Positions 4,260 through 60,922 of a stretch of DNA of 64,000 bases are shown one piece after another (within the stretch, counting starts at the first letter, position 1; each line of letters begins with the position of its first letter). The notes below the pieces were generated by a model that searched no databases, had not been told where the DNA came from, and worked only from the letters and a program-made list of their open reading frames with translations. The stretch comes from Thuidium tamariscinum (taxonomy: Eukaryota; Streptophyta; Bryopsida; Hypnales; Thuidiaceae). The stretch covers positions 9,486,001 to 9,550,000 of the forward strand of contig OX344751.2 of assembly GCA_947034885.2 (NCBI GenBank), written 5' to 3'. Both the position numbers and the translations under genes were made by a program.

Positions 4260-5936
4260 AACGCAAGTAATGTACTCATGTCCTTCCCTTGCTTTCTGGC
4301 CTTTCTTCTAGCAATAGCTTGCCTTTGATTTTCTTTGCAAATTGGAGGGGGAAATCCATAGTAAGGTGTTTTCTATGTTCTCACTACTGTCCCAACTTTG
4401 ATGAGTGCATGAAGTCTATCACCATACTCTGCTACCGCTTTTGCAAACCATGCTTCGTTGTGCCATTCTTTGATTCCATCAAAACTTGTCTCTTAGCCTT
4501 AGCAATTTATTTTTCTCTTCTCTCTCTAGCTTTGATAAGGTTTTTTTGTTGTACCTCTAATCTTTTCTGCTCCTTCTCTTCTATAGCTGCCTCCTTTTGC
4601 ATTGCAATCTGCTCCAACAAGTGGATATAGTCCATTAGGAGAGATTTGAGGGCTCTAGGAGCCCGCGAATTCCCATAGCCCAAAATCACGTAATCTGCAG
4701 CGGGAATGCAGTTTCGCACGAATCCTATGTGGTCGAGACCATGCCACGTCATCAAATTTATTTTTTTTGAAAAAAAAAATTGGACTTTTTTCATATTTCA
4801 GGACCACACACACACACCATTTTTAAAAAAAAAATTGTTGGCCTGACAATAGCCAGCCATTCCCATACTAGTTTTGGGAACAGACCTGAAACGGCCCTTT
4901 GGAGCCCTCAAATCCCTCCTAATGCATTTTGAGTCATCCAAATGGACTTTGAATAATCAATGTAAGGCTCTCCTCCTTTCCTTGTTTTCTTTACAATTGG
5001 TAGCTCGACGTGGGAAAGTTTTAAAGATTGATAGAAATTGTCTTCTTCTTGTATAGAACTGTCGTCATTCTCTGCGATTGAAACTACTTTGTCAGATTGT
5101 TCACTGTTACTTGACAATTCAACATAGTAATGTTTACATTGCGATAGACTGTCTACATCCTCGTCATTGATTTCTTTGATTTGCCACTCTTGCAGACCCC
5201 CATAATGAACTACATTGAAGTTTTCGGAAGAAGAATGCTCTTCAACAACATTCACACTATGTCCTCCACCTCTTTTGAAATTTAAACTGGGTCCCATCTT
5301 GCCATTCATAGTTGTATCATCATAAGGATAAATTCCAATCGTTTGAAAATCCTTTGTAATATTCTCCTTGGTAAGAGCTCTTCTAAGAGCAAATGCTATC
5401 CATCCAACCAAATCTTCTTTCTTAGGATTTTTCCTGACATGACTCCCTGTCCACTTGTCTTAGTAAGCTCTGAAATCACTTTTAAATGGTTTGAAACATG
5501 TTACATCAAGTGGCTGCAATGCATGTGACGTATGGCTAGGAAGAGTAAAAAAAATATATCCCACTTAGCATAACTATTTTCACAACTTCTAATATAGCAT
5601 GTGATGTGTGACCATCTAAAATGAGTAGATGTCTACAAGTATGAGATAATTCATACTTTTCTTTCACATTTTTGATAAAATGCTTCATCCACGCTTTGAA
5701 TAATAGATGTGTCATCCAAGCTTTAGGTTGCATACTCATGCTAGCCTTCTTGTCCCTAGTTTTGGAAAGATAATTGTAGCCTATTCTCTTTCCTTTGAAA
5801 ATAAGATAGTTAAGAAGAGTGTCTCCACTTGCATTGATACAAACGAGAACAGATAACCACTCTTATTGGTTGGGAACTATTGTGTGAACACTTTGTGTTT
5901 TTTTTAGCTATAACTAAACCACCACCGCCTCGTACT
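4260..5936 (-). pseudogene. C-terminal half of pogo-like DDE transposase, split by hAT insertion
   Basis: Read on the minus strand, this gives the downstream part of a pogo/Tc1-mariner (DDE_1) transposase. Just inside the hAT junction is a run GVRGGGGLVIAKK. Near 5640 the frame reads HLLILDGHTSH, carrying the second catalytic Asp, and near 5500 LQPLDVTCFKPFK, carrying the third. Next come GWIAFALRRAL and TIGIYPYD, then an acidic region with HYYVEL and a charged coiled-coil tail that matches the remnant at 49321-50502. Stops and frameshifts break the frame (for example near 5540), and a 290-bp element interrupts the tail. The N-terminal half lies beyond the hAT element at 22103-23370. The family is recognised with good confidence. 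The copy is clearly dead. Confidence 0.85.
4634..4923. mobile_element. 290-bp inverted-repeat element inside pogo remnant
   Basis: The two ends form an inverted repeat of about 22 bp. The left end begins ATTAGGAGAGATTTGAGGG and the right end, reverse-complemented, begins ATTAGGAGGGATTTGAGGG. The insert breaks the pogo tail coding sequence: the tail resembles the 49.3-50.5 kb homologue on both sides, with unrelated sequence between. No coding capacity is visible. The target duplication is unclear, so the superfamily is left open. Confidence 0.7.
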
Positions 5937-5944
5937 CCTTGAGC
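5937..5944 (+). repeat. 8-bp target site duplication (left)
   Basis: CCTTGAGC directly abuts the CAGGG end of the hAT element and is repeated exactly at 22095-22102. An 8-bp target duplication is diagnostic of hAT elements. In the interrupted pogo gene the site lies in codons reading R-A-Q-G on the minus strand. Confidence 0.95.
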
Positions 5945-5970
5945 CAGGGTTGCTTCCGTCGCGTCACGTC
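5945..5970 (+). repeat. hAT left terminal inverted repeat
   Basis: The first eight bases, CAGGGTTG, match the right end exactly. The next bases align imperfectly, with CGCGTCACGT facing CGACGTGACGT, giving an imperfect repeat of about 26 bp. CAGGG is the classic hAT terminus. Confidence 0.88.
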
Positions 5971-6420
5971 CGTCCGTCAGGATGTCCGTCCGCTGACGTG
6001 ACGAGGAGCCGAGCGTCCGTCAAGATGAAATTCACGACAGAATCCGCGACAGAGGATGAAAAATCGTGATAGCGGTCGTGGACGCCCTCACGGACGACCT
6101 CCGTGGACGGCCTGGAAGGATGTGCTCGGTGGACAGTTCCGATGGACGGTCCTGGCTGACTGGACGGCTTGGATGGACACTCTGGGTTCTGCGGACGGTC
6201 CGGATCCGGTGGACGGTTTTAGGGGACGGCCCCGCTCAGACGATCCGCGGGGTATGGACGGCCCGGACGGACGCCTCCAGATCGACGGTCTGGGTACGGT
6301 CTACGCTTAGGAAGGACGGCTTGGATTGAAAGGAACGTTGGACGGCCTGGGTTCGATGGATGACCTGGCCGTGCCGTCGACGGTCAGGATGGACGGCTTG
6401 GGCTCCGTGGACTGGAACTC
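5945..6420 (+). repeat. GGACGG motif array 1 (left end of hAT)
   Basis: A GC-rich block with many copies of GGACGGCC, GGACGGTCC and GGACGGCTTGG on the plus strand, in sharp contrast to the AT-rich DNA beside it. Unlike the three other arrays it has no gene next to it, which suggests a terminal role such as transposase binding; subterminal motif arrays do this in Ac and other hAT elements. Open frames across it, including 6056-6329, are by-products of the repeat. Confidence 0.85.
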
Positions 6421-6578
6421 TTTATTTGTAAGACTTAAAAGTCTGAGTTCATATTCGCAATCAAAATTTTCTCACTAGTCTATGTGGTTTAACCATCTCT
6501 AAAAAAATAATTTCGAAAGTTTTGTATTTTAGGCCTTCCATTAGTTCCATAGTCTAAATATAATATATATTCTGTGTT

Positions 6579-7835
6579 TAAAAAAAGAGTGTTAATGGTT
6601 TGAATCAAAAAAATGGAAATGGTTTGAATGAAAATAACGTTAATGGTTTGGAATTGTGAATAAAAAAAAATGTAAAACTGGTTTTGAAAAAAAATGTGTT
6701 AATTGTTCGAATAAAAAAATTATGGAAATGGTTTGAATCAAACAAATGGAAATGGTTTGAATAAAAAAAAAACGTTAATGGTTTGAAATGTTGAATGAAA
6801 AAAAATATAGAAAGGGTTTGGAAAAAAATGTGTTAATGGCTTGACCCAAAAAATTTGGAAATGGGTTGGGAAAAAAATGTGATTAGGGTTTGACTAAAAA
6901 AAATATGGAAATGGGTTGAAATGTTGGGAAAAAAAATTTAGAAATGGTTTGGAAAAAAAATGTGTTAATTGTTTGACTAGAATAAATATGGAAATGGTTT
7001 AGGGTAAAAAAAATGGCCAAGTTTTGAGTAAAGAAAAACGGTAATGGTTTAGGGTGTTGGAAATAAAAATATAGAAATGGTTTGGAAAAAAGATGGGTTA
7101 ATGGTTCGACTCAAAAACATATGGAAATAGTTTGAATCAAAGAAAAAGAAAAAGGAAATGCTTTGAATAAAAAAAAAGTTAATAATTTGAAATGTTGAAT
7201 ACAAAAAAATATAGAAATGGTTTGGAAAAAAAATGTGTTCATGTTTCGACTAAAAAAAATATGAAAATGCTTCGAATAAAAAAAAAGGCAATGGTTGGAA
7301 AGGTTGGAAAAATATATATAGAAAGGGTTGTGAAAAAAAATGTGTTAATGGTTCGACTAAAAAAAATATGGAAATAAGTTGGAAAGAAAATGTATTCAGG
7401 GTTTGATTAAAAATAATATGGAAATGCTTTGAAAAAAAAAACTTTCATGGTTTGAAATGTTGAATAAAAAACATTTAGAAATGGTTTGGAAAAAAAATGT
7501 TAATGCCTTAATGGTTAAAGCTCAAATTGGAAATAGTTTGAATCAATAAAATGGGAATGGTTTGAATAAAAAAGAACGTTGATGGTTTGAAATGTGGACG
7601 ACAAAAAAATATAGAAATGGTTTAGAAAAATGTGTTCATGGTTCGACTAATAAAAATATGGAAATGGGTTCAATCTAAAATATGGAAAGGGGTTGAATCT
7701 AAAAAATGGAAATGGGTTAGGGTAAAAAAAATGGTTATGGTTTGACATGTGGAAAAAAAATGTGGAAAAATGCGGTGGGAAAAAATTGGGTTAATGGTTT
7801 GATTAAAAAAATTCGAAATGGTGGGAATAAAAAAC
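6579..7835 (+). repeat. A-rich degenerate minisatellite
   Basis: About 1.25 kb of degenerate tandem units built from ATGGTTTGAA, ATGGAAATGG, TGTGTTAATGG and runs of A, each unit roughly 25-30 bp. The same units appear in reverse complement at 12773-13133, so the two blocks form an inverted pair around the RING gene. Short frames such as 7192-7377 are repeat artefacts. Confidence 0.85.
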
Positions 7836-8202
7836 AAAAGCATATATACTTGTGGCTTATCAGCATATGTAAAAAATAGAATTTTGGCATTTTTTAAAAG
7901 TAAACTTAGAAAATATACTTTAAGTGAAAGTATGGCATTGGATTTAAATGAACTTGTTGCACATACATTTCAAGCAAACGTATTGAGTATTCTTTTCATT
8001 TGTTCATGGTTAAGTTTTCTGTTTAAGTGTTTAACAGACAATATAGTTGTACGAGAAAAATGAAAATGCTTCATTGCCCAAAAAATGTACTTTTGCAACA
8101 TGAGCAATAAACGCTCGTAAATGGTCGTCATAGCCAAATACTATTTACAATACTAATATACTATACATTCGTCTAATGGCCTAACTCATCACCAGAAGGT
8201 AT

Positions 8203-10608
8203 TCAACCTTGTTCTAGTTCTACAATGCCTCTGGCTATACTATTTCTCAAAAAAATTTGCAATCCTTCTCTAGATTGCAAACTGTTCAACGTAGCCACTA
8301 CGGTCCGATCATATCGATCATGCAAGTAGGAAGAAATGGATGACAACATTTGCACCTCATTGAACGTAGTGTCTTCGATGAACCTCATTTGTGCCTCATG
8401 ATCCAGGTCTTGGAGTATTCCGATAGGGTTTCCGCTGGAGTCAAAAACCACATTCTTTGGATGTGGTCGGCGCACGAACTCCTCTCGGTCCAAGTCCCAA
8501 TGGCCACCAGCAAGTTGGCCAAAAAATACTCGCCGCCCTGGATCGCCCGCACCAATCAGCTTCTTGCACACCTCCGTAATCTCCGCATCATCGATCCACG
8601 GAACGTCTTGCACGCTGCGCATGGTGAGGTGTCTACTGTCATGGCCCCACTTCCACATCCATATCATGTCATTACCCCAACTCCCTCTATTCTCATCGCC
8701 AGGCACGTTCTCTTCGTTTAACTCGAAGTGTGGGGGCATGTGATGCTCCAACCCAAATTGGGCGTACAACCGCCGGTGCAAAGGAGCCTTGCATTGCGCG
8801 CACCGCTTTCTTGTGACCATGTGCGGAATGAGACATCCGGGGTGGTACATATGTCCACACGTTCCAAGGCTCCATCCACCCTCGGGCCCAAACGGTTCCA
8901 TGCAAATCATGCACGTCGTTCCATCCTTCACAAACACGGGAACTGTGGGCCACAGTAAGGAGGTATTGCCTTCTCTATCCACGGGCCCGTATCGATGTCT
9001 CGCGGTGTTGAATTGGAAGTCTAGATGCGGATGCCCGTCCCAATCAATGCTTGCATTATCGCGATTTGTGGGCAATGTAACTGGAAACATGTCCTCCAGT
9101 CGGGCCCACGATGTCAAGCCAAAATAACGTTGGCTACCATCTCTAAATTCTGCAGCTACTCTCCTGACCTCACGCTGCAATTGCGCGACCTCGTTCATAG
9201 CCAAAGTGCATGCCAATCTCATGTTGCTCATGGCAAGCAACTTTTGCTCCCGGTCAGTTGCCGTTTGGAGCAACAATCTATCCTTCATGGCATTTACAAA
9301 TGCCAACTCGTCCTGTAGTTCACTCATAGACGCTAATACAGCCTCCATGCTGGCCTTGGCCTCATTGCACTCGCCCTCTGCACGCTCCGCTCGTGCCACA
9401 ATGGCATCGTACGCCACGCGCTCAACGCTAATGAACTCTTGGCCCAACGCATCTGTTGATTGGTTTGCCGCATTTGAACTCTCACCACGAAAATGTGGTG
9501 TTGGGAATATACCACGAGGCCGCACCTGGCGCACCGTCAACGGGTCAGCTGGCTCAATTAGACCATATGTGGCCCGCTCCACGACCTCATCCAATGGTGG
9601 AGTGCCATCCATGTTTTGGCGACGTACATGTTCAAGCAAGTCAATGTTACTTGCTAGTAACTTAGCATTCGTTTCCTCCAAAGCCTTCACCCGTGCGTTG
9701 TGGGCTTGTACCTCCATCTCGTGCCTTCACCCAGCTTCTGCACCATCCTCACGCAACTGAGTCACCAATGCACGTAATGCCTCTAATTCCCCATTCGCTC
9801 CAAATACTTCATTAATTGTCGTGGACGGGGGAATTGGGTGAATGGCGAGTGGCATGGGCTCGCTTGGACCGGCAATGGGCGCCTCCAATTCGGGAGCCAC
9901 CGGGTTTTGTTCGTTGGCGCCTTGTAGTGCATTGTCGACCTCCATGGGGTCCGCGTCCGCCACTTCGTCCCGTTGTGCCCAAGCCACTCCTTCGCCCTCC
10001 AACTGCACTGCAGGATTTGGTGGAATTCTACGGCTTTTAGTAGGGAAACGGCCACCCCGTTGTTTTGCCGTATACGTGTTCCAATCCATGTCCTTGCCCA
10101 AAAAACCCTCCGCATACGCCATTTGACACAATGCGAGGGTCCCATCCTTCTTCGAGAGGGTCCCCCAAAGTGCCAATGCCACCTCGGTCAACCGCTTCTT
10201 GAACGCCGGGTGTATGCAGTACTTTATCAATGCAACGCCAGATCACACTTGCGTCTCATTTCTCTCCCGTGGAAAATGGCGGTTGATGTGGGCCCAGTCC
10301 ACGTATGCCCGACATGTGGTGCGGGTCCATGGCTCAAGCACATGTTCCCACCCGGGCGCGGCCAAAACTTCACCAGTGTTGAAAGTCGCCCAGTCTACAG
10401 TGCTCCTGTTCCCACGACGCCTCCTGTGTGGGGGTTCACCTTCATGGGTCACCATCTCCTAGTTTTCTACCACTGGGGGGTGATTTGCAGGAACTACCAC
10501 CTCCTGGTTTTCTACCACTGGGGGGTGATTTGCAGCAATTACCACCTCCTGGTTCTCTGCCATGGGGGGGTTTTCTACATGTATTACCATCTCTTCAATT
10601 TCTGCCAT
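8203..10608 (-). CDS. Coiled-coil / RING-H2 protein, cargo gene of the hAT (frame broken by three stops)
   Basis: One reading frame runs from ATG 10608 to the stop at 8203 (802 codons), interrupted by TAG at 10459-10461, TGA at 10243-10245 and TGA at 9727-9729. The last part alone, from ATG 9717, is an intact 504-codon frame. The N-terminus has 15-residue repeats (PPVVENQEVV type). The middle is of unknown fold, with WATFNTGEVL and HPAFKKRLTE. Numbered from 9717, residues 1-35 and about 100-195 look like coiled coil. A RING-H2 finger follows, with C269, C272, C287, H289, H292, C295, C306 and C309. A C-terminal region rich in Trp and His (MIWMWKWGHD) is unrecognised. RING-H2 proteins are usually E3 ubiquitin ligases, so ligase activity is an inference. 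Array 2 and a TATA box lie upstream. The stops suggest decay, or less likely readthrough. Confidence 0.8.
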
Positions 10609-10811
10609 AGTATCTGCACACAATGCCACAACACGGATGTATGTATGTACAGATGACTATGCTCTGCCTCCTGTTGCGTGAGGGCAATTGGAATGTGGCA
10701 AAGCAATAGCCAAATGCTTGACTTCCTCCCGAATTGCAATGCAAAGCTTTTTGCAAGCTAGGACAGAGCAACTCAAGAGAGAAAGCAAGGTTCATTGCGG
10801 CTGAATTTGGG

Positions 10812-10818
10812 ATTTATA
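10812..10818 (-). promoter_or_regulatory. TATA box of the RING gene
   Basis: TATAAAT on the minus strand, about 200 bp upstream of ATG 10608 and just downstream of motif array 2. The same order of array, TATA box and gene is seen for the other two genes of the element. Confidence 0.6.
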
Positions 10819-10884
10819 CTCCCCATTACCAAGGCTCGTTAGGAGTGTTAATTTGTGTCTAATCACATCGCCATGCACCACCTG

Positions 10885-11175
10885 GAGCCGTTGATGCGGA
10901 CGGCCATCGACGGTTGGGGCGTCCTGGGAGTGTCAAATCTGGTTCGGGAGGCCGTCGACAGGTTCGGGATGACGTCACAGAGGCCGTCCACAGGTCCGAC
11001 GCCGTCAACGAGTTCGAAAACACTCATGAGTTCGAAAAACACTAATTACTGCGCCGAATTACAAATTCGACGGCCGAAAATGGCTGTTCGTGATGGCCTG
11101 CCCGGCTCCGGCCCGAGGTCCTGGACGGCCCAAATTCGTTGCGGACGGCCTGCCCAGGTCCTGGACGGGCCCAAT
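10885..11175. repeat. GGACGG motif array 2 (upstream of RING gene)
   Basis: A GC-rich block with GGACGGCC, ACGGCCCAA, GGCCGTCGA and GGCCGTCCA motifs, matching the arrays at both ends of the element. It lies immediately 5' of the TATA box at 10812-10818, so it is probably the upstream promoter region of the minus-strand RING gene. Confidence 0.75.
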
Positions 11176-12572
11176 AGGTGGCTACAATATATACCCTCAA
11201 TTTCAATTAGGCAGGTGGAATCCAATTAGACAGCCAGGATCCAATTACGCAATTGGTATTCAGTTAGGCAGTTGAGATGTAATAAGCTATAAGACAGCTG
11301 AATTTTAATGACGGTGAACTGGTGAAGATTGCCAATGCAGTACCTGTATACTGTAATTTTTATTGGAGCTCAGTGAGTTAACATTCACAGCTTGCATTTC
11401 TTTTTTAAAAATTTTGGGATTCATTCATGATTGTGACAAGTGTGTGACTCATTCAGATCTTGTATTTCTTTTTAAATTTTTTTGGGATTCATGATTGTGA
11501 CAAGTGTGTTAGCCATGTATGCATGGTAGGAGGCTAAGATTCCACTTATTTAAATTAAGAGTTGATTTGCCTTTTTCGTGTATGTCTTTAGATGAAAATA
11601 TTTTTAGTTTATTTTTCAGTCAAGGAGAAATAGATGAGGAATCTAATACAAGTTGTTTCATATTTTTTTGAAGCAAAATTGAATTAATTATGAATTTTCA
11701 AATACAATTTGTCATAGGACCCTATTTGTGATCAGTAAGCCTTGAAAACCTATACATGCACAGTTTCTAAAAAAATCTGGTTTGGTTCAAAAACTAGTAA
11801 TGCAACATGTAAAAAACACTAGAAATGGTTTCTAAATGTGTCCCTTTCAAAAACTGAAATGAATTCTTCAATTAATCATTATTTCAAAACAATTTAACAT
11901 TTGAAAGAAGGTAGTTTAACAACCATTTTTTATTTTGATTAAAATTAGTAGACACCTATAAGTACACTTAGTTAGGATTGAATCCATTGTAACTCTAAAA
12001 CCATCCATTCATATAGTAAAAATCAAATCTTAGCATGCTTCAATATAATCCACAATTAGTTTTCTCACAATGAGCTATCCAATTCAGACCCTCCTATTAG
12101 GCAGATAAAAAAGCCTGCATAGTTTATGAACCTCCGTGTGAGCTTCCTACCATAATAGTTGATTTGAGAGCAAGAGGTCCTTGAACTTCTTCATTTTAGA
12201 TGTTAGAATGGATTTGCAGACTTATTGATACTTGTGTTTTTAAACACAATCGGCTTATTAAATTCCCTAAGTTTTCTTATTATATAAATGAATGTGAATA
12301 TGCTCTTGTGCCTTTAAATTGGTTTTAAATATTGCATTAGGATTGTATACTATAGTTTAATTTCTCTATTGCGTGCTTTGTTTTCTTATAAATGGTGAAA
12401 TATAAATAGTTGTAGCTTTGATTTTTGATTTTCAAACTCTTTAGTGGCACAAAGATAGCATATGTTGTGTGTTTCACCATGTTCTTAGTTCATCAAAATC
12501 CTTGAAGCTGACATGTTTCCTTGTATACAATGTTTTTGATCTTCTCAGTATTTTGTAATTATGAAATGTAGA
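11176..12572. other. AT-rich hAT interior with small direct repeats
   Basis: No gene is seen. At about 11200-11300 there are short spaced repeats of the type CAATTAGRCAG. At about 11391-11512 a unit of about 65 bp is repeated twice, ending in GATTGTGACAAGTGTGT. The rest is AT-rich without a domain-bearing frame. Confidence 0.55.
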
Positions 12573-12772
12573 AAAAAAATAGGGTGTTCAAAAATAGTCC
12601 TTCAAAGAATTTACAAAAGAAAATAGGGTACTCTAAAATACACTCCGGTAGCTTTATTTCTACTAATAGGGAGGGAAAAAAACATGAGAAGGACATAAAT
12701 ACCCCCCCCATTAAATACCCCATTATCGCACGTGGTTACCAAAAGATAAGGGGTGTGAACCCCCCGAGTCTG

Positions 12773-13133
12773 TTATTCAAACCATTCCCATTTTTTTTAT
12801 TCAAACCATTTCCACATTTTTTTCCAAACCGAACCATTTCCATATTTTTTTAGTCGAACCATTAACCCATTTTTTGGTCCAAATCCCTTCTATATATTTT
12901 TGCCCAACACCCGAAACCATTAATGTTTTGCTTTATTCACACCACTTCCATTTTTGGGATTCAAACCATTTCCCTATTTTTTTTAATCGAACCATTAACA
13001 CATTTCTTTCCAACCCATTTCCACATTTTTTTTATTCGAACCGGGCTCGACAATTTCTTTCCAAACCCTTTCTATATTTTTTTGGGGTAACTTTTTTAAC
13101 CCTTTGACGTGTTTTTTTGGTTCAAACCATTAA
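12773..13133 (-). repeat. Inverted copy of the A-rich minisatellite
   Basis: Units such as TTCAAACCATT, AACCATTTCCA and GAACCATTAACAC are reverse complements of the units at 6579-7835. Together the blocks form long inverted repeats flanking 7.8-12.8 kb. The open frames at 12584-13107 are by-products. Confidence 0.8.
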
Positions 13134-14540
13134 CACACTTGCGGAATTCTAACTCTTTCTTCTAGGGTTTATCATACACTTCGGCAAAGAGAGGATTAGA
13201 GCGGTTTAGGGTTCCGCAGAAGAGTCTGAATTCTGAAAATTGGTTGGTGCCCACTAACGGAGTCTTGCTTGCCAGTGCCCCCGTCCTAAACTCCTAATTA
13301 GTGCTTTAGTTCACTTATACTTTCATAACTCATAGTTTCATAACTCATAAGTAGAGTACATGACTACATGACCAGAATATTATGCAATATAGTAATATAC
13401 TAATATGTACATGTAGTACTAATCTAATTTCCTAAAAAATATATGCCTAGTCGGATGGCTCCTGAATTTAAAATTGAGAAGTTTAAATCCCTACATATCC
13501 GTAGGGCAACTTCTAAAATTTAGGGTCCATCACTTCAGCCATTCTCGATATGAGCTGAAGCACTGGAAGGCAATGTAAAATTTTAGCCGTGTACATTACA
13601 CACTACCCACCAACAAGTTTAGGATCATCCAATTCTGCCATTGAAACGAATTTTGCGTAATATAATCAAGCATACCAAATGTGGATTTCACATAAGTCAA
13701 ATTCAGTTTTTGGTGAATTGTTTCATTCAAAACTCATGGTTTAGCATGATAATTGATTATAAAACATTGGTGATGAATTAGCATTAATTTGCAAAGAGGA
13801 GATATGTAGGAAACATCCATATGCACATCTTTCATACCAAAAAACATCCTAGATTCCTAGTAAGTTACAACAATATAATTGGGTTGAAGAATTCAATTAG
13901 GCATTTTATATGACCCCATTTTGTAAAATAGATGTATGTACGCTTGAATTAGATTTAGGCAAAGTCATTGTACGGAAATGATTTAAGTTCCTCAAGGAGT
14001 TATAGTGTGACCATCAAATAGCAAATGCTAATTAAGCCGGATTAAATTATTAAAATTAGCTCCTATTTCCTAAATTTGCGGGGGAGAATGAAATTAGATG
14101 GAAAGGGAGGAAGTAGAGCTTTTTGACGACACAACTGAGAACGGATACGCATCAACCGAAGAGGTATGTGTTTAGACTAGAACCAATAAGTTTAATCATT
14201 TCATGTTATTTCTTTTATTTACTTCAAAATTTGCAAAATTAGATTGACGCTAGGAAAAGAAAGATCAATTACAGAATACAAATTATAATGCACTTCTTAA
14301 GTTATTAAATTACTAAACTAGACATTTTACCCTCATTTACGCAAAAGTAAAAAGGAACTTAAACCCTAAACCCTAAACCCTAAACCCTCAGTTGGGCAAG
14401 GCCTTTAGGCTGGGTTTTCACCTTCTCAAAATTCAATGTCAGCCCTTAGATGGGCGGTTTCTGGGCCTGTTACCTTATTACCTTGTAGAAGAATTTCAGT
14501 CGCACGAGGCTTGCCATTAAGTCCGTTAATGGCTTCGCTG
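13134..14540. other. Non-coding hAT interior between minisatellite and kinase promoter
   Basis: No supported gene. A slightly GC-richer piece at 13140-13300 contains two CTAGGGTTT/TTTAGGGTT-like stretches, and the remainder is AT-rich. A telomere-like run sits near the right side. Confidence 0.5.
14362..14388 (-). repeat. Interstitial telomere-like repeat
   Basis: Four tandem copies of AAACCCT, the complement of the plant telomere unit TTTAGGG. Plant promoters often contain one or two such telo-boxes, and this one lies about 540 bp upstream of the kinase-gene TATA box. Confidence 0.85.
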
Positions 14541-14574
14541 GCATCTTCACCGCCCTGTGCTTCCCCTTAATGGT

Positions 14575-14890
14575 TCAGAATTCCCGGGACGCCCAGTGGG
14601 GTCCCGTGGACGGCCTCGTTCCACGACGGACCCCCAAATTCCCCATTCGGCTTGTGCGTCCCCTCGACGGTCTCGCAGTTCCTCGACGGTCCCCACGACG
14701 GCTTTGAAATTCCCGGGACGGATGGGGCGTCCCGTCGACGACCTCATCATCCTCGACATTCCCCTTGACAGCTTCCAAATTCTGAGGACGGCCAGCGGCC
14801 CAGCGCGTCCCCTCGACGGTCTCGAAGTTCCCAACACCCCTCAACGGCTTTCGAGTTCCCTGGACGGATCGGCCGTCCATGCGACGGCTC
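14575..14890 (+). repeat. GGACGG motif array 3 (upstream of kinase gene)
   Basis: A GC-rich array of TCGACGGTCTCG, GGGACGGATGGGG, GGACGGCC and TTCCCGGGACG motifs, ending 10 bp before a TATA box that precedes the kinase-fold gene. Composition and motifs match the terminal arrays. Overlapping frames on both strands (14547-15066) arise from the repeat and show no domain. Confidence 0.78.
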
Positions 14891-14899
14891 GCCAACGAC

Positions 14900-14906
14900 T
14901 ATATAA
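14900..14906 (+). promoter_or_regulatory. TATA box of the kinase-fold gene
   Basis: TATATAA on the plus strand, directly after motif array 3. Transcription would start near 14930. A short intron could follow, with donor GTGAGT at 15049 and acceptor TTTTTCAG ending at 15100, just before ATG 15102. Confidence 0.7.
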
Positions 14907-15114
14907 GGTGGGCCAGTTCCCCCACTCTGCACGAGTCTCTCCTGCTCTGACGGTGCTCTCTTGCCCTGGATTGGTTGCAGTCCTTGCTTGGGAGCGCGGG
15001 TGCTTGCGAGGAGGCTCGGCTAAGGAAGGGGGGATAGTTTTCACATTTGTGAGTACTGAACCCTAATTCCTTGGTTTTACCATCGCATATTATTTTTCAG
15101 AATGGACGGGCGAG

Positions 15115-16764
15115 GTGCGTCGAAGCACAAGGTTGATGCGTGGTTTTCAAGCATCGGAGATTCTGTTGGTGAACAGTCTCCAGAATCCATTGACTGCGTA
15201 TCGGAGGCAGTATTGGCCGGAGAAGGGGTCGGTGGTGTGGCTGGAGGAGAATCTTCGGGGGCCAAGAAAAAAAAAGAACAAGCGGAGGCACAAGGCTGCG
15301 AATACAGACGACTGGCCAAGGAAGGCTGCGACCAGGAAAGTGCAGGAAGTGGCATTGGATTTTCTGGAGCAATATACAATTGCTCAATTGAATACAACCT
15401 ACGTCTCGCGTGGATTGCAAGGGGTGGAGACAATAAAAAACAAATTCACCCACATGTTTTGGACAACAATGGGCGAGGATGAGTGGCTTGAAGATCGCAC
15501 AAAGGAACACTTCCGTCGTTGGCTTGACGAACAAGTGCAAACTTGTGTTTTCAACATCGCCCAAGTCGCCGCATCGGTAAAGGGCTTCAAACGAGATGTA
15601 GCGCCGAAGCAACAAGCATTGCATTTGTTGCACAAAAAGGTGTATTGGTGGCATGACGCAATGCGAGCGCTGTCTTCCAGCAATATCCGCTCTGCCCCAT
15701 GGTTTCAGCAAAGCCAAAGCTTGTCCCTAGGCCAAGCGGGTGCAGGAGGAGTGGTATTTCTCGAACGAGGAGTGGTGGTGGTTCCATTGTCAGGCCACAA
15801 CAAACAAGGGGGGCACGGGAGGGTGCGTAAAGTGAGCCTCCAAAATTCAAGGCACATTCCCCCCACGATGGAATTGGCGGGCAAGACAGCCCTATATGTG
15901 GATCAATTGAAGAAGTCGCGGGAGAAGTTGTCCATCGAGGCTTTGGTTTGTCCATGTAATCATCCAAGGGTCATAAAATTTTTTGCTATAAATGACATGA
16001 CCATGGAGTGTTATTCTCAATGGTGGAATGGAGGAACATTGGGAGCCATGTTCACCTTGGACCACAAAAACCGAGATTATGCTGAGATCGGGGAGCTTGC
16101 CTACCATGCAACTCCACAGACGATGCAAGAAGCCAAAAGACTCTTGGCTTATCGTAGAAACCGCACCGAGCTTGCATGGGCGTTAATTTGCATCGTGGAT
16201 GCGGTGCAACAATCTTCGGTGCTCCACAACGACATCACGCCAGAAAACATCATGTTGCATTTTCCGAATGATGATGGGCGAACAGTGTGGATTGGGCTAT
16301 GTAATTGGGGAATGGCTAGTCGTATCAATGAAGAAACCCATTCTTTGTACCAGTTTCAATGTGGAAGCCAAATGCGGGCTACACGTCAGAAACGTTGGTG
16401 GGTGGCCCCTGAATTGATGTATGTGAGTGGAGAGGCGGGCACTTTGGTATCCCCCACTCGCGCAGATGGGGCACCATGTGTCAGTATACATACGGATGGA
16501 TTTGCTGTTGGGAAGCTTGCGGAGAGGATATGGAAGAAAGACCGCGAAAATATGGAAATGCTTCCCGACCATACAGCGTTTGGTACATTTCAAGCCACAT
16601 TGGGCGAATTGTGCAAAGAGGACCCACTACAACGACGCACGGTTACGTACGCCGTGGGACGAATTAGTGGCGCCCCCTTATTTTGGACTCCACCCGTGGA
16701 TTGCTACCGCGAGGCCCGCAAGGAGCAAGCACTTCTACAAGAACAAGCAAGGAATGAAGATTAG
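15115..16764 (+). CDS. Protein-kinase-fold protein, cargo gene of the hAT
   Basis: The open frame gives 549 codons; residues are numbered from 15115. A Lys/Arg patch at 51-60 could be a nuclear signal. Residues about 95-200 are of unknown fold. The kinase fold follows: Gly-rich loop QGGHGRVRKV (231-240), Lys257 in LAGKTA, HP-R-IKF at about 293, NGGTL, catalytic loop HNDITPEN (371-378) with Asp373 and Asn378, NWG (397-399) where DFG is usual, and APEL (431-434). The missing metal-binding Asp makes activity doubtful; GAT to AAT decay would explain it. The true start is unclear. In this frame the first ATG is at 15136, whereas ATG 15102, in a good context after a possible acceptor, opens an overlapping frame of 126 codons. 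No close named family is recognised. Confidence 0.82.
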   Translation: MRRSTRLMRGFQASEILLVNSLQNPLTAYRRQYWPEKGSVVWLEENLRGPRKKKNKRRHKAANTDDWPRKAATRKVQEVALDFLEQYTIAQLNTTYVSRGLQGVETIKNKFTHMFWTTMGEDEWLEDRTKEHFRRWLDEQVQTCVFNIAQVAASVKGFKRDVAPKQQALHLLHKKVYWWHDAMRALSSSNIRSAPWFQQSQSLSLGQAGAGGVVFLERGVVVVPLSGHNKQGGHGRVRKVSLQNSRHIPPTMELAGKTALYVDQLKKSREKLSIEALVCPCNHPRVIKFFAINDMTMECYSQWWNGGTLGAMFTLDHKNRDYAEIGELAYHATPQTMQEAKRLLAYRRNRTELAWALICIVDAVQQSSVLHNDITPENIMLHFPNDDGRTVWIGLCNWGMASRINEETHSLYQFQCGSQMRATRQKRWWVAPELMYVSGEAGTLVSPTRADGAPCVSIHTDGFAVGKLAERIWKKDRENMEMLPDHTAFGTFQATLGELCKEDPLQRRTVTYAVGRISGAPLFWTPPVDCYREARKEQALLQEQARNED

Positions 16765-16980
16765 AGAATAGTATTTTAGTGGCAATGTAATCGTAGACGT
16801 ACCTTAGTACTTGCTTTTACCACAGTATAGTCCACGAACTTTGCCTCACTGAATTTTGTACTAACTCCTTTTTGAAATAAATATATGTAAATCTTTTTGT
16901 TCCATTCGAGTATGATTCCGGTGAGTGGATTTGTGAGTAGTTCTGTCCCTTCGCAAATTTTGGACTTAATGCCATGTTAA

Positions 16981-17910
16981 CCCCCTAAAGGACCACGGCC
17001 GTTTTTCAACCCAAAACCACTCAAAACTGCCATTTTTGTTCCATACTTCCATTCATCCATGAAAAACAAAAAAACTAAATTTTTAGAATCTAACCATAGG
17101 ATCTTGAACTTTACTTAACTAAGATGATGTGGTGAAAATTTCATGAAGTTTGACCGTATAGATAGGAAGATATGAGCATTCAAAGTTGGAAAACAAAGTT
17201 TTCTTAAACTCTAGTTTGCAACTTCAAATGACTTTGTCCTCCATTTATGTAATTTTTTTGCACTACAGACCTTGAATTAAATTTTTTTTTAATTGAGAAA
17301 TTGAGCTAAGAGCTTAGGAAAAAAAATTCACAAAATAAAGACTTTTTTTCATTCTTTAAAAAATTGTCAAGTAGATGTAGGTCCAAGATTGAAAGAAAAA
17401 CTAAATTGCAAATATCTCATAGATGGAATTGAAACACAATAATCCCAATGGTGAGATTGTTCTAGAAAACAAAATCAACCTTGTCCAACAATTTTTTTTG
17501 AAAAATTGTGAAAATTGCATTCACAAATGAATCCTATAAGTTATTTTTTCAAGAAGATGCTTAGATTGCCCGAAAAACAAGATTGTTCATAACATTCACA
17601 TTACTAATCCAAATGGAATGAATCAAAGCTTTACTTGTAGACAAAAATATAATCTATAAGAAAAAAAATTTATTTTTTTAATTTTGAAGTTTTTGTAGAT
17701 TTTTTTTTCTGCCCGGCAACATGAAAATTATGTTTACGATGGCATAACTTTTGCTCTCGGTCACCAATTGAAAAAAATTAATATTTCCACGGAGCTAATC
17801 AGTTTTTTTATCTTATGTGAAAATTTCAATAAAATTCATTAAAAATTGAAGTCACAAGTACCTGCCCTAATTCTTAAAGTTCCCCGAGGGGACTCTTGGT
17901 CCTTTAGGGG
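16981..17910. mobile_element. TTAA-flanked non-autonomous element, copy 1 (930 bp)
   Basis: TTAA at 16977-16980 and 17911-17914 flanks ends CCCCCTAAAGGACCA and TGGTCCTTTAGGGG (inverted). Two further copies, at 54509-55436 and 59996-60918, share ends, length and interior. A TTAA duplication with C-rich ends starting CCC is the pattern of piggyBac elements. No transposase is encoded. This copy is inverted relative to the other two and nested inside the hAT element. Confidence 0.85.
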
Positions 17911-17914
17911 TTAA

Positions 17915-18295
17915 TTCAGTACTTTCAATCATTTTCTCCATATTCCAGATTACATTTGTTTTCTTGTACAGGGCAAAATCCATAATGATCTCAAAATATC
18001 CAAGCATGTAGGTAACCAGCTTCGAAGAATGAATCCAAATTTAAGAGTATAGAACACATGGCAAACGACAAAGCAAATATTTCCATTTCTTGGGACAAAT
18101 ATCCATAAATGGATCCGTTGTTGCGTTGTAGAATTTGTGACATGTGAAGATAAAAAATTTCTACCCATGCGCCTTACATGAGCACAGGAAGCATGGGTAG
18201 TATTTATAATTAATGCCGAATTTCACATGCAAGGTATTCAGCCTTACACAATATTACATAAGATGACATGGAGACATTTTTTTCCCTAGATGCTC
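17915..18295. other. Region between nested element and transposase tail
   Basis: No gene is supported. It probably holds the 3' untranslated part of the minus-strand transposase gene, which converges on the kinase gene. Confidence 0.5.
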
Positions 18296-19450
18296 TCAAC
18301 GTCTTGCACGTGTACGATTAAGAGCCATGCTCCTTGCAGCAGCCTCTCGCGTGGTTGCTTGATTGTCTTGAGGTGCAGGTGGAGGACCTCTACGAGTCCC
18401 TCTATAATCACTATCTCCCGGAACTTCACCATCTTCACCTATACTAGGACCCATGGATTCATCATCATGATTGGACGTTGCCCTACCGACTTCGCTTGGT
18501 GAGTTGTCAGGGCTGTCTGAGCCTTCACCTACTATAGAAGCCAATCTGCGGATTGTTCGCCCCCCTACTCCATCTCCAGCGGTATCCACACTGGGCCCCG
18601 TCGGTCCAGGGAGAAGACCTTCGCGGAGAAATGGTATACTCGCCGCTTCTTCCCTTCTTAGCCTTCTACGTGTTCTTCTACTCACACGTTCGTTGGTGGG
18701 GCCTTCTTCACGTGGCCACGGCCGTCGATTAGTAGTGCGTGTAGGCGGTGCAACGGGTTGTTCTGAGGATGGAGGTGCATTCCTTCGCTCGGTCATATTT
18801 AGAGTTGGGAAGAGACCGGCCAATCGTGTACCGACTGATGGAGTTTCTTGGTTGGGGCGGGCTCTAGAAGATGAAGGCCGTGCTGAATTTTGGACGGGTG
18901 GATCATCCAAGCTAGGCGCTTGTGGTCGCACGCCGATCGTGTCTCGACGCAATGTACGAAAGTCTATCTCGACACCAATGGAGGATCTGTGGCTACGAGT
19001 GTTCCGCGCCACTGGGGGATCTGTGGCAACGACCTCATCTTTGCCTTGTCTTTCTACCACAACGACATGTTCATGTCTCCGGGTACGCATTTCTTCTTCA
19101 ATCGGCCCTATAACCGGCGAAGGTGGGGCTTCAACCCCTTCGTTTTGATTTCCACCACTTGACCCCGCAATCGATGTACGTGGCATCCATGACAGACTGC
19201 CATCATTTCCCCCGTTGTCATTTCCATCCTCATCTCCCTCGTGATCATTTCCATCATTATCTGTGCCATCAAAGTCAAATACGGACTCGTCAATTAGGGG
19301 ATCCCTTTCTTGCCTTTCACCCAAAGGCCGAAATGGTGGATCATCATCGCCATTGGAACTGTCGTCTGAGTCATCGTTGTTAGCGTCTGACATAACCGAA
19401 CCACGATCCAAGCCATCTGATTCGGTTGTCATGGAATCTTCGGACAACAT
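18296..19450 (-). CDS. In-frame C-terminal extension of the hAT transposase (acidic/basic, disordered)
   Basis: This 384-codon frame is in the same register as the transposase and is separated from it only by TGA at 19466-19468 and five codons. The first third is very acidic and Asp/Asn/Gly-rich. The middle has basic Arg-rich patches (SRRTRRRLRREE), and much of the rest is Ser/Pro-rich, so it looks disordered. Many plant hAT transposases have an acidic tail after the dimerisation domain, but 384 residues is long. Either the TGA is a recent nonsense change in a longer transposase, or the second frame is a separate product starting at ATG 19450. I favour the first reading, because the long clean frame implies recent selection as one protein. 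Confidence 0.6.
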   Translation of the reverse strand: MLSEDSMTTESDGLDRGSVMSDANNDDSDDSSNGDDDPPFRPLGERQERDPLIDESVFDFDGTDNDGNDHEGDEDGNDNGGNDGSLSWMPRTSIAGSSGGNQNEGVEAPPSPVIGPIEEEMRTRRHEHVVVVERQGKDEVVATDPPVARNTRSHRSSIGVEIDFRTLRRDTIGVRPQAPSLDDPPVQNSARPSSSRARPNQETPSVGTRLAGLFPTLNMTERRNAPPSSEQPVAPPTRTTNRRPWPREEGPTNERVSRRTRRRLRREEAASIPFLREGLLPGPTGPSVDTAGDGVGGRTIRRLASIVGEGSDSPDNSPSEVGRATSNHDDESMGPSIGEDGEVPGDSDYRGTRRGPPPAPQDNQATTREAAARSMALNRTRARR

Positions 19451-19465
19451 GTTCTCAGTGTACCA

Positions 19466-21430
19466 TCATGTTGCATCCGCCGCACCCCTTTCCCTGAGAG
19501 TCCTCGAATTGGTATAAATGTAAACCAATTCCTCCGCTCGCTCAGATGTCAATCTGTTGCGAGACTTGCTGTGGACAAATGAATACATGCTCCAATTGCG
19601 TTCGCATGATGATGCGGAACATACTTGTGCAAGGATCCTTCTTGCAATAGGTGCAAGCGTATGAGCACCGGCTCCGAGAAGATCCCACCATTCATGCGGC
19701 TCCAAATTCAAAGTATTCACATCGGGAAGTCCAGCGAACATGCCTCGGCGGTCTCGAAAGGATTGGTACTCAAACAAAGCGGCTGCATATCCCAACCCTC
19801 CAACTGCCAATTTGCGTAGTACTCTAAGAATGGCCTCCTTTGCCTCGTTATCGTCTATTAGTACAATTTCATCAAGGAGGAATGGATTGAGCAGGGCAGC
19901 TGCGTAGTGCAAATCGGTCTTCATCAAATCCCATCGTTCGTAAAACGCATATTTAGCACGGTCCGCATAATTTGCCTCCAATGAAAATGGTCGATTCCTC
20001 AAAGCCAAAACATGCTTTTCTAGCTTCTTCATCACGATCCATGCTTTGCCCATGACCGGATGTTTTCCATCAAACTCTCGAAGAGCCACCAACACAGGCT
20101 CTACCATATGCACGAAGTTGAGACACCTCCTCCAGAACTCGTCCTTTCGAACCCTACGTCGAACATTTTCTGCCTTATTGTGTATTGCAACATTCGAGGA
20201 CCTCACATATTCGTTCCACTGCGGATCATGGACTGTAGATTCCACGGCTTCCTTGACCTCGGCCAAACGCTCGATCATGATGAACATGGTCGCAAAACGT
20301 GTCTCAATGGGATTCTTCAACATGAGATTAGGAGAATGTCGTCGGAAAATGGCGAGTGGCATGTGATGCGTGCGAATGAATTTCACGATTGATTTTGCTT
20401 TCTTCACCATTTTGACCACCCAAAGTTGCTTGCCCCAATCTTCAAGTAGAAGGTCAAGTGCATGCGCGGAACAACCTTGGAAATATAGGTGAGGGAATTC
20501 GCGAGTAATTTGAGTACCAGCCAAACGCATGTTTGGCGCATTGTCCGTGCAAACTTGCACCACATTATGTCCCCCCACTGCGTCAATGTAATCGATCATG
20601 CGATTAGCCACATAAACAGCGTCTTTGCTTTCGCCTGTAGTGTCCACCGATCCCAAAAATACTTCTCCACTCGTGCACGACAACATTACATTGATCAATG
20701 GCCGATGGGTGACATTGTCCCATCCGTCAGAACATATAGTGACACCGTACTTGTGGATAGGCCCCCTTGTCTTCTCCGCTACCAGTGCAGCCACTTCCTC
20801 CTTTGTTGATGTCATGAGCTTCGTACGTATGGCATTGTAAGGTGGAGGTTTGTAAAGAACTCTGGACTCGGAGGTTGATTTCACGGCATCCACAAAAGCG
20901 GGGTGTCTCACCACATTGAATGGGATATTTGCTTCGTAGAAAAACTTCGCCCACTTCTTGTCTAGTACTTGCTTTTTGGATGTGTCCATCCCTTCTTGTA
21001 CGGATAATTGCCTCAGCGGTCGACTATGGGTCGAAGAAGGGACAGGCGCCTCTGATGATCGAACTTGAGAATTTTGGCCCAAAGTATTTCCTCCCCCTCC
21101 ACTAATTGAGATTGAAGCATTGGGTAGTTCTTGATCACGTACCACCCTCGTTGGATTCGATGACGATGATGTCACTTCCACATCATGTTCCTCTTCGTCT
21201 TCGGAGACCGTAGGAACATTCCCCCCACAATTGAAAAACATAGCCTTCACTGCTGCACTGGCCTTGTTGCACATTCTCACTCCGGGGAGGGTGTCATTTC
21301 GTCTATAATCCAAGTGGAAAAGCAAGCGATCCCTGCGGTAACTAATCTTCGTTTTGTAGAACTTGCATTCCACTTTCCCATCCTGTTGTAGCCTGTACCA
21401 GGGTTCCTATTGTGTCCTCCCCCCTCCCAT
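19466..21430 (-). CDS. hAT superfamily transposase
   Basis: The clean frame is 21373-19466 (635 codons, numbered from 21373). The frame extends upstream to ATG 21430, crossing one TAG at 21407-21409. At the start is a BED-type zinc finger with WYRLQQDGKVECKF and a later His; the usual second Cys is Tyr (CKFY). DUF659 and the RNase-H-like core follow, with CSDGW (Asp216), CTDNA (Asp277) and CSAHALDLLLED (301-312). The C-terminal dimerisation domain has EWWDLLGAGA (561-570) and CSASSCERNWS, with Glu591. The D-D-E set is thus present. The protein should bind the element's ends and cut and paste it. A 5' exon is possible, with a donor at 21514. Array 4 and a TATA box precede the gene. Two nonsense codons suggest this copy is inactive or nearly so. 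Confidence 0.93.
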
Positions 21431-21642
21431 TGCTCCCACTGGTTCTTCACTTGAAACTGCACAAACAAAACAGGTTAGTATTCTGTTTGGATGTGATGTG
21501 GAAATAACACTTACTGCTTTCACAGCAAGTGTTCCTCCCACACACTCTTCTTGGACTTCACTCTAGTGCAATGGCTGTGTGCCAACCAGGTCATAAGAGC
21601 AGAGATCAACAAGGAAAAGTGACCTTCAAATACACAGCTTGT

Positions 21643-21651
21643 GCTATATAC
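21643..21651 (-). promoter_or_regulatory. TATA box of the transposase gene
   Basis: GTATATAGC read on the minus strand lies just downstream of motif array 4 and about 215 bp upstream of ATG 21430. The position mirrors the TATA boxes of the two cargo genes. Confidence 0.55.
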
Positions 21652-21667
21652 TGTGAAGGCTTGGCAG

Positions 21668-22068
21668 CAGTCGTCCAGTCGACGGCCTGTCCGTTGGCGC
21701 ACTGTGGACAGCCGCGGACGGGACGTCGTGGCCATCCCCGCAGACGCTCTGGCCGTCCAGCGGACGTCCCGCTGTCCAGACGACGGCCTGGCCGTCCCCG
21801 CAGCGTGGACGGACTCTGGACGCCGTGACCGTCCGCTGAACAAAAAACTCTCGAGGCGACGGCCTGGCCATCGCGCCTAAACCCTAAAGCCGCGGACGCT
21901 CTGGCCGTCCACGCAATGGCTAGTCATCGAGGCGACCGATAGGCCGTCTACGTGCTGTCGACGGACTTCATCCGCGCTGTCGACGACGCCGTCAGCATTC
22001 GGGACGGCCTCTGACGCGTCCTGACTCGTCACGACTGACGCGTCATGACATCCGGACGGGAAAAGCCC
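21668..22068 (-). repeat. GGACGG motif array 4 (right end, transposase promoter)
   Basis: A GC-rich array with CGACGGCCTG, GGCCGTCC, GGACGTCC and GTCGACGG motifs between the transposase TATA box and the right terminal inverted repeat. It mirrors array 1 at the left end. Sites near a hAT terminus commonly bind transposase and can also repress its own promoter. Confidence 0.82.
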
Positions 22069-22094
22069 ACGTCACGTCGGGATAGACAACCCTG
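22069..22094 (-). repeat. hAT right terminal inverted repeat
   Basis: Ends in CAACCCTG, the complement of CAGGGTTG at 5945. Further inward CACGTCACGTCGGGA aligns imperfectly with the left end. Confidence 0.88.
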
Positions 22095-22102
22095 CCTTGA
22101 GC
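22095..22102 (+). repeat. 8-bp target site duplication (right)
   Basis: CCTTGAGC, identical to 5937-5944. Confidence 0.95.
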
Positions 22103-29436: not shown

Positions 29437-29585
29437 ATGATATCCAGCGCATTAGCTACACCTGTCACACATTCAAAAGTCGAGACGCTAAGATCAACGA
29501 TGTCTGAGTGTAGGTCCCCAGTTCCATTGCTATGTTCGATTCGAAGCTTGCTTGCTGACCATGTTGGCTGGTATTAATATTGCAG

Positions 29586-32500: not shown

Positions 32501-32776
32501 TACCAGGGTTTGAGGAGTCTCCCTGAGGCAAGAAAACTTGCTCTCTTATTTGATGGTCAGTACCGTAATGGTTATTGTGCTACTGGAACCGAGGGCGGGC
32601 GGGGTGCCGGAGCGTACTGCGTGATTGAGAAGTCCCGCGCTGCTTTTATATTCGTTTTGGATCATTGGGCGCTAGAGCAAACAGAAAAGAAGAAATTGGA
32701 AGAGAAACGTCAGATTCTCCTGGAACTGTGTGATGGATCAGGAACAACATCAAAACAAGAGAGTGAAAGAGCATGA
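29586..32776 (+). CDS. 2-oxoglutarate/Fe(II) dioxygenase with long C-terminal region, copy A
   Basis: Two main exons are visible, 29586-30582 (acceptor TATTGCAG, donor CAG|GTACGG) and 31008-32776 (acceptor TATCTTCAG). They join in phase to about 920 residues, and at least one 5' exon is needed. ATG 29437 (MISSALATPV) is conserved in copy B, but its splice is unresolved. Numbered from 29580, the dioxygenase core has H157-x-D159 in AHRDTE and distal H217 with R227 in CEHSLEPVRRGSR, the iron and 2-oxoglutarate ligands of the prolyl-4-hydroxylase-like fold. The second exon, about 590 residues, begins EFGEFPRG, has a WxGVDDQKLPIYPW-like start and helical repeats, and is unrecognised. Hydroxylation of a protein is the family expectation; the substrate is unknown. 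The tail is shortened relative to copy B by a 2-nt deletion. Confidence 0.88.
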
Positions 32777-59991: not shown

Positions 59992-59995
59992 TTAA

Positions 59996-60918: not shown

Positions 60919-60922
60919 TTAA

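What the first reader, a model, noticed from the sequence alone, without database searches (positions are those of the whole stretch)
5945..22094. A 16-kb hAT transposon with a perfect 8-bp target duplication and two non-transposase cargo genes
CAGGGTTG ends and identical CCTTGAGC flanks show that the whole 16,150-bp block moved as one unit. hAT elements are normally a few kb with a transposase only. This one also carries a RING-H2/coiled-coil gene and a kinase-fold gene, each with its own promoter. A large cargo-bearing hAT would be a distinct class of plant mobile element.
Basis: partly seen in the sequence, partly recalled or inferred. Interest (0 to 1): 0.92.

Follow-up and report, generated by a model that had tools for sequence, protein, structure and literature searches.

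The report
High-copy three-gene hAT transposon family
A plant genome, probably a moss, holds many copies of a roughly 17-kb jumping gene that carries, besides its own transposase, a protein kinase gene and a RING-finger gene, and the kinase appears to have been kept by natural selection about as strictly as the transposase itself.

Summary
The 16,150-bp block (5945-22094) has CAGGGTTG...CAACCCTG ends and a perfect 8-bp duplication. It interrupts an older DDE_1 transposon; nine related sites elsewhere lack the insert. Ten other copies, chosen for having the left end plus the kinase, were fetched: 8 of 10 have both ends, all three genes in the same layout and a private perfect 8-bp duplication, 16.7-17.3 kb. 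A left-end pattern matches 315 places. Of 68 listed transposase hits, 34 have a listed kinase and a listed RING gene at the expected spacing. The window copy is damaged in all three genes, but 3 of 9 complete copies have all three frames open, and 7 of 9 are about 99% alike: the family moved recently. Kinase constraint is about as strong as the transposase's, RING constraint weaker. GACGG arrays lie at both ends and before the RING and kinase promoters. Most likely kinase and RING are built-in accessory genes co-regulated with the transposase; what they do is inferred, not shown.

The parts
5937..5944 (.). Left target-site duplication CCTTGAGC
   Evidence: related empty sites carry the target once, three as GCTTGAGC and one as GCTTATGC
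5945..6415 (+). Left end: CAGGGTTG terminus plus subterminal GACGG array (19 motifs)
   Evidence: left-end 24-mer with up to 3 mismatches at 315 places, reversed control 0
6580..7840 (+). AT-rich degenerate tandem repeats (period about 133 and sub-periods 24-50)
8203..10608 (-). RING-H2 gene with a predicted long helix (low confidence), ATG at 10608; window copy broken by stops at codons 50 (10461), 122 (10245), 294 (9729)
   Evidence: open 787-codon frame in 6 of 9 other copies examined
10818..11180 (-). RING promoter: TATA box (10818) with upstream GACGG array at 10880-11180 (9 motifs)
14560..14905 (+). Kinase promoter: GACGG array (12 motifs) directly upstream of TATA box at 14900
15102..16764 (+). 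Protein kinase gene; window copy has a frame break in a 9-A run near 15270 and Asn in place of the DFG Asp
   Evidence: open 553-codon frame in 5 of 9 other copies examined
16977..17917 (.). About 940-bp TTAA-flanked repeat, related to two copies elsewhere in the window; appears to be part of the whole family
   Evidence: kinase-transposase spacing 2666-2730 bp in 46 of 46 linked pairs; 15,919-16,007 of the window element's 16,150 bases align in each of 8 other copies
18296..21430 (-). hAT transposase gene (1044 codons; DUF659, dimerisation domain, long C-terminal extension); stops at codons 8 and 655 in the window copy
   Evidence: open in 5 of 9 other copies examined
21650..22094 (-). Right end and transposase promoter: TATA-like box (21650), GACGG array (14 motifs), terminus CAACCCTG
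22095..22102 (.). Right target-site duplication CCTTGAGC

Best explanation
This is one decayed copy of a high-copy, recently active hAT family of about 17 kb with three genes: transposase, protein kinase and RING-H2 protein. SHOWN: the unit inserts whole, with an 8-bp duplication; the three genes travel together in many copies; copies with open frames of each gene exist; the kinase shows purifying selection about like the transposase, the RING gene more weakly; GACGG arrays sit at both ends and before the RING and kinase promoters in each of the nine complete copies examined. INFERRED: the transposase binds these arrays, as Ac transposase binds its subterminal ACGG-containing hexamers, both to cut the ends and to co-regulate the three promoters. 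The kinase and RING protein are accessory factors that help the element spread, most likely by changing or removing a host restraint (silencing or repair factor) or by tuning transposase activity. They are not chance passengers.
For: Copies: of 11 places noted with a left end and a kinase at the right spacing, 10 were fetched; 8 of 10 have both ends, an exact private 8-bp duplication and all three genes in one layout, 16,721-17,256 bp; one of the eight has a one-base change in its left terminus. Genome-wide: 315 left-end 24-mers with up to 3 mismatches, reversed control 0. Linkage in the truncated hit lists: 47 of 85 RING hits have a listed kinase in the element's orientation, 0 in the opposite one; of 68 transposase hits 46 have a listed kinase (0 a kinase in the wrong orientation), 46 a listed RING and 34 both. 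Empty sites: 9 of 9 non-window matches to the joined flanks cross the junction; in the 4 that I aligned the target is present once, 3 as GCTTGAGC, 1 as GCTTATGC. Selection: nonsynonymous/synonymous ratio between two subfamilies 0.23 for kinase (p=2e-5), 0.23 for transposase (p=1e-5), 0.57 for RING (p=0.02); among copies other than the window 0.30 (17 copies), 0.38 (9 copies) and 0.57 (13 copies). Catalytic kinase residues: Lys and Glu in 27 of 27 relatives, HxD Asp in 25, DFG Asp in 26 with one gap. Arrays: 54 of the window's 103 GACGG sites lie in four blocks totalling 1,548 bp, and 0 of 500 shuffles reach the GACGG count in any block; clusters at the corresponding places in 9 of 9 complete copies. 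Youth: seven of the nine complete copies are 98.9-99.5% identical to one another.
Against: The window copy is broken in all three genes. Of the 10 fetched copies one has both ends but no matching duplication and one is interrupted by another element. Selection on RING is weak: window against three young copies 0.64-0.87, p 0.09-0.57, against all 13 others 0.21-0.94. Kinase ratios also vary: window against 17 others 0.21-0.64, highest against near relatives, and pairs are not independent. Three other kinase loci match from query residue 1 and one of them aligns without a gap across the window's frame break, so a lineage may have moved with a broken kinase. No expression, binding or activity data. 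Array function rests on analogy. The fetched copies were picked for having a left end and a kinase, and the hit lists are cut to about the best tenth, so the share of gene-less or partial copies is not known; the right-end count and a search for more distant kinase and transposase families in this genome did not complete.
Confidence: 0.85

Rival explanations
1. Passenger model: an ancestral hAT captured two host genes (transduplication, Pack-hAT style) and has amplified them since; the genes do nothing for the element.
For: Gene capture by hAT elements is on record (histone H3 in a fungal hAT, PMC6710886 passages; maize Pack-hAT, PMC8903248 passages). RING shows weak constraint. One other copy aligns without a gap across the window's kinase frame break.
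Against: Kinase constraint is about that of the transposase. Both genes have the element's GACGG array upstream in 9 of 9 complete copies (the RING start codon was located only in the window, elsewhere by position). Weak support: one kinase relative and one transposase relative each report a longest contig of 6,480 bp; expected by chance 0.008 among the 8 closest of each, but 0.28 among the 26 kinase and 82 transposase lengths used (of 27 and 110).
Confidence: 0.12
2. Composite or nested structure: two or more separate hAT elements and trapped host DNA that only look like one unit (macrotransposon).
For: GACGG arrays also lie inside the element, as the ends of inner elements might.
Against: No inner TIR plus duplication at the inner arrays, while the same scan finds the outer pair (random regions of the same size gave 1.0 chance hits per scan, so the test has limited power); about 16 kb of the window element aligns with each of 8 other copies that have private duplications.
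Confidence: 0.02
3. The kinase and RING genes serve the host (adaptive cargo, as proposed for fungal Starships), not the element.
For: Signalling-type genes; purifying selection on the kinase.
Against: Many near-identical copies and promoter arrays shared with the transposase.
Confidence: 0.08

Closest known systems
Ac/Ds of maize (hAT)
   Same: 8-bp duplication, short terminal repeats (11 bp), many subterminal AAACGG hexamers that the transposase binds (PMC3260210, passages); the motif here also has an ACGG core
   Different: Ac is 4.6 kb with one transcript for an 807-aa transposase; this is about 17 kb with three genes, and the arrays also precede the two other promoters
Histone H3-carrying hAT of Pseudocercospora fijiensis
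   Same: Large hAT (about 9.5 kb) with an extra coding sequence, 8-bp duplications, 99 full-length copies (PMC6710886, passages)
   Different: Captured housekeeping gene, inactivated by RIP; the paper found no other domains in the element
Pack-TYPE elements (Pack-hAT)
   Same: Plant TIR elements with extra coding sequence
   Different: Described as non-autonomous with captured gene fragments (PMC8903248, passages); here whole genes sit beside the transposase gene
ToxhAT / ToxTA
   Same: 14-kb gene-carrying element once called hAT
   Different: Re-classified as Tc1/mariner-like with a TA duplication and 74-bp TIRs (PMC12506042, passages)
VANDAL21 with VANC anti-silencing protein
   Same: Plant DNA element with accessory genes and fast-evolving tandem motif arrays in its non-coding parts that its own protein binds (PMC5735166, passages)
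   Different: Different superfamily (Mutator-like, recalled); kinase and RING were not compared with VANC beyond the Pfam scan; anti-silencing here is only a hypothesis
Starship giant elements of fungi
   Same: Gene-carrying mobile elements
   Different: DUF3435 tyrosine recombinase and far larger, 143 and about 200 kb in the cases seen (PMC9594970 and PMC12506042, passages); here a hAT transposase

Membership tests
hAT superfamily | 8-bp target-site duplication | tested here: met
   Window and 8 of 10 fetched copies, each different; 1 of 10 has unmatched flanks and 1 is interrupted
hAT superfamily | Short terminal inverted repeats of 5-27 bp | tested here: met
   8-bp perfect CAGGGTTG, imperfect beyond; range from a PMC12506042 passage
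hAT superfamily | Transposase with DUF659 and hAT dimerisation domain | tested here: met
   Asp227, Asp288 and Glu602 invariant in 9 aligned proteins; their catalytic role is recalled
hAT superfamily | Demonstrated transposition by this transposase | not testable with these tools
   no bench data
Pack-TYPE (Pack-hAT) | Non-autonomous, no functional transposase of its own | tested here: not met
   Transposase gene present in all 9 complete copies and its frame open in 5 of 9 other copies examined; function not tested
Pack-TYPE (Pack-hAT) | Captured fragments of host genes with a host parent copy | tested here: inconclusive
   Genes are whole; a host parent was not searched for
Starship | DUF3435 tyrosine recombinase captain | tested here: not met
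   Pfam scan of the five ORFs that make up the element's three genes reports no DUF3435
VANDAL with VANC | Mutator-type transposase and a VANC protein | tested here: not met
   Pfam scan of the five ORFs that make up the element's three genes gave hAT, RING and kinase-type domains only

The most novel reading that the evidence does not exclude
An autonomous hAT that evolved its own signalling module: a kinase and a RING-type E3-like protein expressed under transposase-bound arrays, which disarm a host restraint on the element, making it a multi-gene element of a kind that my searches did not find described for hAT.
Probability: 0.45. Interest if true: 0.9.

Novelty: new variant of a known kind. 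Interest (0 to 1): 0.78.

Why it matters
hAT elements are usually small one-gene units. A family of 17-kb units with a kinase under selection about as strict as the transposase would show that plant cut-and-paste elements can keep signalling genes of their own. It offers a natural system to test how a transposon counters or exploits host regulation, and some genes labelled as kinases or RING proteins in moss genomes may really be transposon genes.

Tried and rejected
Inner nested element (arrays at 10880-11180 and 14560-14900 as ends): no TIR plus duplication. The 940-bp TTAA repeat as a late nested insert: rejected, because kinase-transposase spacing is the same in 46 of 46 linked pairs and nearly the whole window element aligns in 8 other copies. 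Structure prediction of RING (mean pLDDT 52) and kinase (41) was too poor to use; no fold search was run. Scans of viral contigs and genome contigs found no relative. No tRNA and no Rfam match in the window. Contig-length coincidence is kept only as weak support; 26 of 27 kinase and 82 of 110 transposase contig lengths were used, the rest left out by hand. Literature searches listed no kinase-carrying hAT; these were listings, apart from passages searched in six papers and in PMC5735166. The library lacks most subscription papers, and no repeat database was searched. PMC13317346 has no occurrence of the word hAT.

Full report
WHAT WAS CLAIMED AND CHECKED. The ends and duplication are exactly where stated: CCTTGAGC at 5937-5944 and 22095-22102, CAGGGTTG opening at 5945 and CAACCCTG closing at 22094. 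Of 316 CAGGG..CCCTG pairs in the window only this one has an exact 8-bp duplication. The transposase carries DUF659 and the hAT dimerisation domain, the second gene a RING-H2 finger, the third a protein kinase domain that scores just under the Pfam cut-off in this copy.

THE UNIT INSERTED WHOLE. On the minus strand the left flank holds the DDE_1 domain of an older transposon. Joining the flanks with one copy of the duplication keeps one reading frame across the junction...IWNCDKSR|AQGVRGG...; that this is the first catalytic-Asp motif of such transposases is recalled, and a Pfam scan of the joined peptide did not extend the DDE_1 match over the junction. The genome gives a more direct test: searching 292 bases of joined flanks found 11 matches, of which 2 are the window's own two halves and all 9 others, at 67-81% identity, cross the junction without the insert. 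In the four that I aligned the target is present once, GCTTGAGC in three and GCTTATGC in one. These are paralogous copies of the host repeat, not the orthologous empty allele.

OTHER COPIES. The window lies in an unnamed assembly of 363,211,507 bp in 19 contigs. A 24-base left-end pattern with up to 3 mismatches occurs 315 times, its reversed control 0 times. From the kinase and left-end hit lists I noted 11 places where both lie on one strand about 10 kb apart and fetched about 19 kb at 10 of them. In 8 of 10 the element is complete: same ends (one has a one-base change at its left terminus), an exact 8-bp duplication that differs at every place, RING, kinase and transposase in the same order and orientation, 16,721-17,256 bp. 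Of the other two, one has both ends but unmatched flanks and one is interrupted by a second element. These ten were chosen for two of the features, so they prove that the family exists and not what share of copies is complete.

LINKAGE GENOME-WIDE. Hit lists are cut to about the best tenth (kinase 77 of 772 first-look candidates, RING 85 of 726, transposase 68 of 709). Even so, 47 of 85 RING hits have a listed kinase in the element's orientation within 12 kb, 0 in the opposite orientation; 46 of 68 transposase hits have a listed kinase 2,666-2,730 bp away, 46 a listed RING, 34 both, and 0 a kinase in the wrong orientation. Of hits on contigs C1-C3, 26 of 32 RING and 22 of 29 kinase hits have a listed exact left end at the expected offset. 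Of the 100 listed left ends, 39 have a listed RING or kinase and 16 both. Unlinked items may be partial copies or have partners missing from the cut lists.

STATE OF THE COPIES. The window copy is decayed: transposase stops at codons 8 and 655, RING stops at 50, 122 and 294, kinase frame break in a 9-A run and Asn for the DFG Asp. Of 17 other kinase copies compared, 16 keep the Asp and 1 has Asn. Nine of the 10 other fetched copies were examined for frames (the interrupted one was not): the transposase frame is open over about 1,044 codons in 5, the kinase frame over 553 in 5, the RING frame over 787 in 6, and 3 have all three. Seven of the nine complete copies (window included in the nine) are 98.9-99.5% identical to each other; the window copy is 96.3-96.9% identical to the other eight and one further copy about 95% to the seven. 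The family has therefore moved recently and the window holds an older member. One other kinase locus aligns without a gap across the window's frame break, so that break may have travelled.

SELECTION. Between one pair of copies from two subfamilies the nonsynonymous to synonymous ratio is 0.23 for the kinase (19/316 synonymous, 16/1136 nonsynonymous, p=2.1e-5), 0.23 for the transposase (p=1.4e-5) and 0.57 for RING (p=0.018); window against three young copies gives 0.24-0.33 (kinase), 0.39-0.43 (transposase) and 0.64-0.87 (RING, p 0.085-0.57). Over all comparisons with the window the ranges are 0.21-0.64 for kinase (17 copies), 0.32-0.54 for transposase (9) and 0.21-0.94 for RING (13). Mutations after insertion are expected to be neutral and push ratios up, so low values are conservative; the pairs are not independent. 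The RING finger motif is intact in the window and all 10 other fetched copies.

REGULATORY ARRAYS. GACGG/CCGTC is concentrated in four blocks: left end 19, before RING 9, before kinase 12, right end before transposase 14; 54 of 103 window occurrences in 1,548 bp; 0 of 500 dinucleotide shuffles reach the count in any block, while the three coding controls lie below their shuffle means. The right flank control also has more GACGG than its shuffles (35 against 19.4, 0 of 30), at low density. Each of the three genes has array, TATA-like box, leader and an acceptor-like CAG shortly before the ATG; the intron reading is inferred. All 9 complete copies show clusters at the corresponding places, with changing motif number and the RING array in one or two clusters; 200 shuffles of one copy gave a largest cluster of 5. 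In maize Ac the transposase binds many AAACGG hexamers in the terminal 200 bp (PMC3260210, passages), so transposase binding is the natural guess for the arrays.

RELATIVES. Among hits named as plants the closest are from the moss Ceratodon purpureus, 26% for the kinase and 44% for the transposase; the transposase also has weaker relatives in conifers, flowering plants, Chara and Closterium. One kinase hit is named as a Bacilli MAG, probably contamination (inferred). One Ceratodon kinase cluster has 126 member sequences, which may count one protein in several databases. RING has 5 relatives, none with an organism name. Hence 'moss' is an inference. Catalytic Lys and Glu are kept in 27 of 27 kinase relatives, the HxD Asp in 25 of 27, and the DFG Asp in 26 with 1 gap, so the family looks like active kinases.

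MECHANISM, SHOWN AND INFERRED. Shown: a whole-unit insertion with 8-bp duplication, repeated in many places; three genes kept together; selection on kinase and transposase, weaker on RING; shared arrays. Inferred: transposase binding and co-regulation; kinase and RING acting on a host restraint or on the transposase. I put the accessory-gene reading at about 0.85 as a whole, and the specific counter-restraint role at about 0.45.

COMPARISON. It is a hAT by every sequence feature tested. It is not a Pack-TYPE element as defined (own transposase gene). ToxhAT, the obvious fungal parallel, has been re-classified away from hAT (PMC12506042, passages). A fungal hAT of about 9.5 kb with captured histone H3 is the nearest precedent found, and the same paper gives about 5 kb as typical and a range of 110 bp to 7,144 bp (PMC6710886, passages). 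VANDAL21/VANC is the nearest plant analogue for accessory genes plus fast-changing motif arrays (PMC5735166, passages). I found no report of a kinase-carrying hAT in the searches listed under Tried and rejected.

Noticed in passing
28090-33111 and 38842-43900: A roughly 5-kb duplication in direct orientation (83% identical) in which each copy encodes a 2OG-Fe(II) oxygenase-domain protein and a second large ORF with no Pfam match.
   Followed up: partly
16977-17917, 54557-55435, 59991-60922: A TTAA-flanked repeat of about 940 bp, three copies in the window; the two outside are 79% and 88% identical to the one inside the element, which appears fixed in the family by spacing.
   Followed up: partly
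14360-14388: About four telomere-like TAAACCC units inside the element.
   Followed up: no
6580-7840 and 12770-13131: AT-rich degenerate repeats in the element occur in inverted orientation in a second place between RING and kinase.
   Followed up: no
51471-51819 and 57359-57708: An inverted pair of about 350 bp at 91% identity.
   Followed up: no
L002, L003, G000:C7:21630706-21632400: Three other kinase loci match the window's kinase from query residue 1, and L002 aligns without a gap across the window's frame break; a lineage may have moved with a broken kinase.
   Followed up: partly
P0032: A Ceratodon purpureus kinase cluster with 126 member sequences suggests that related kinase genes may be multi-copy in that moss too.
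   Followed up: no
4908-5862 and 22103-23344: The insertion site is a decayed DDE_1 transposon; nine related sites in the genome lack the insert, four of them aligned.
   Followed up: yes
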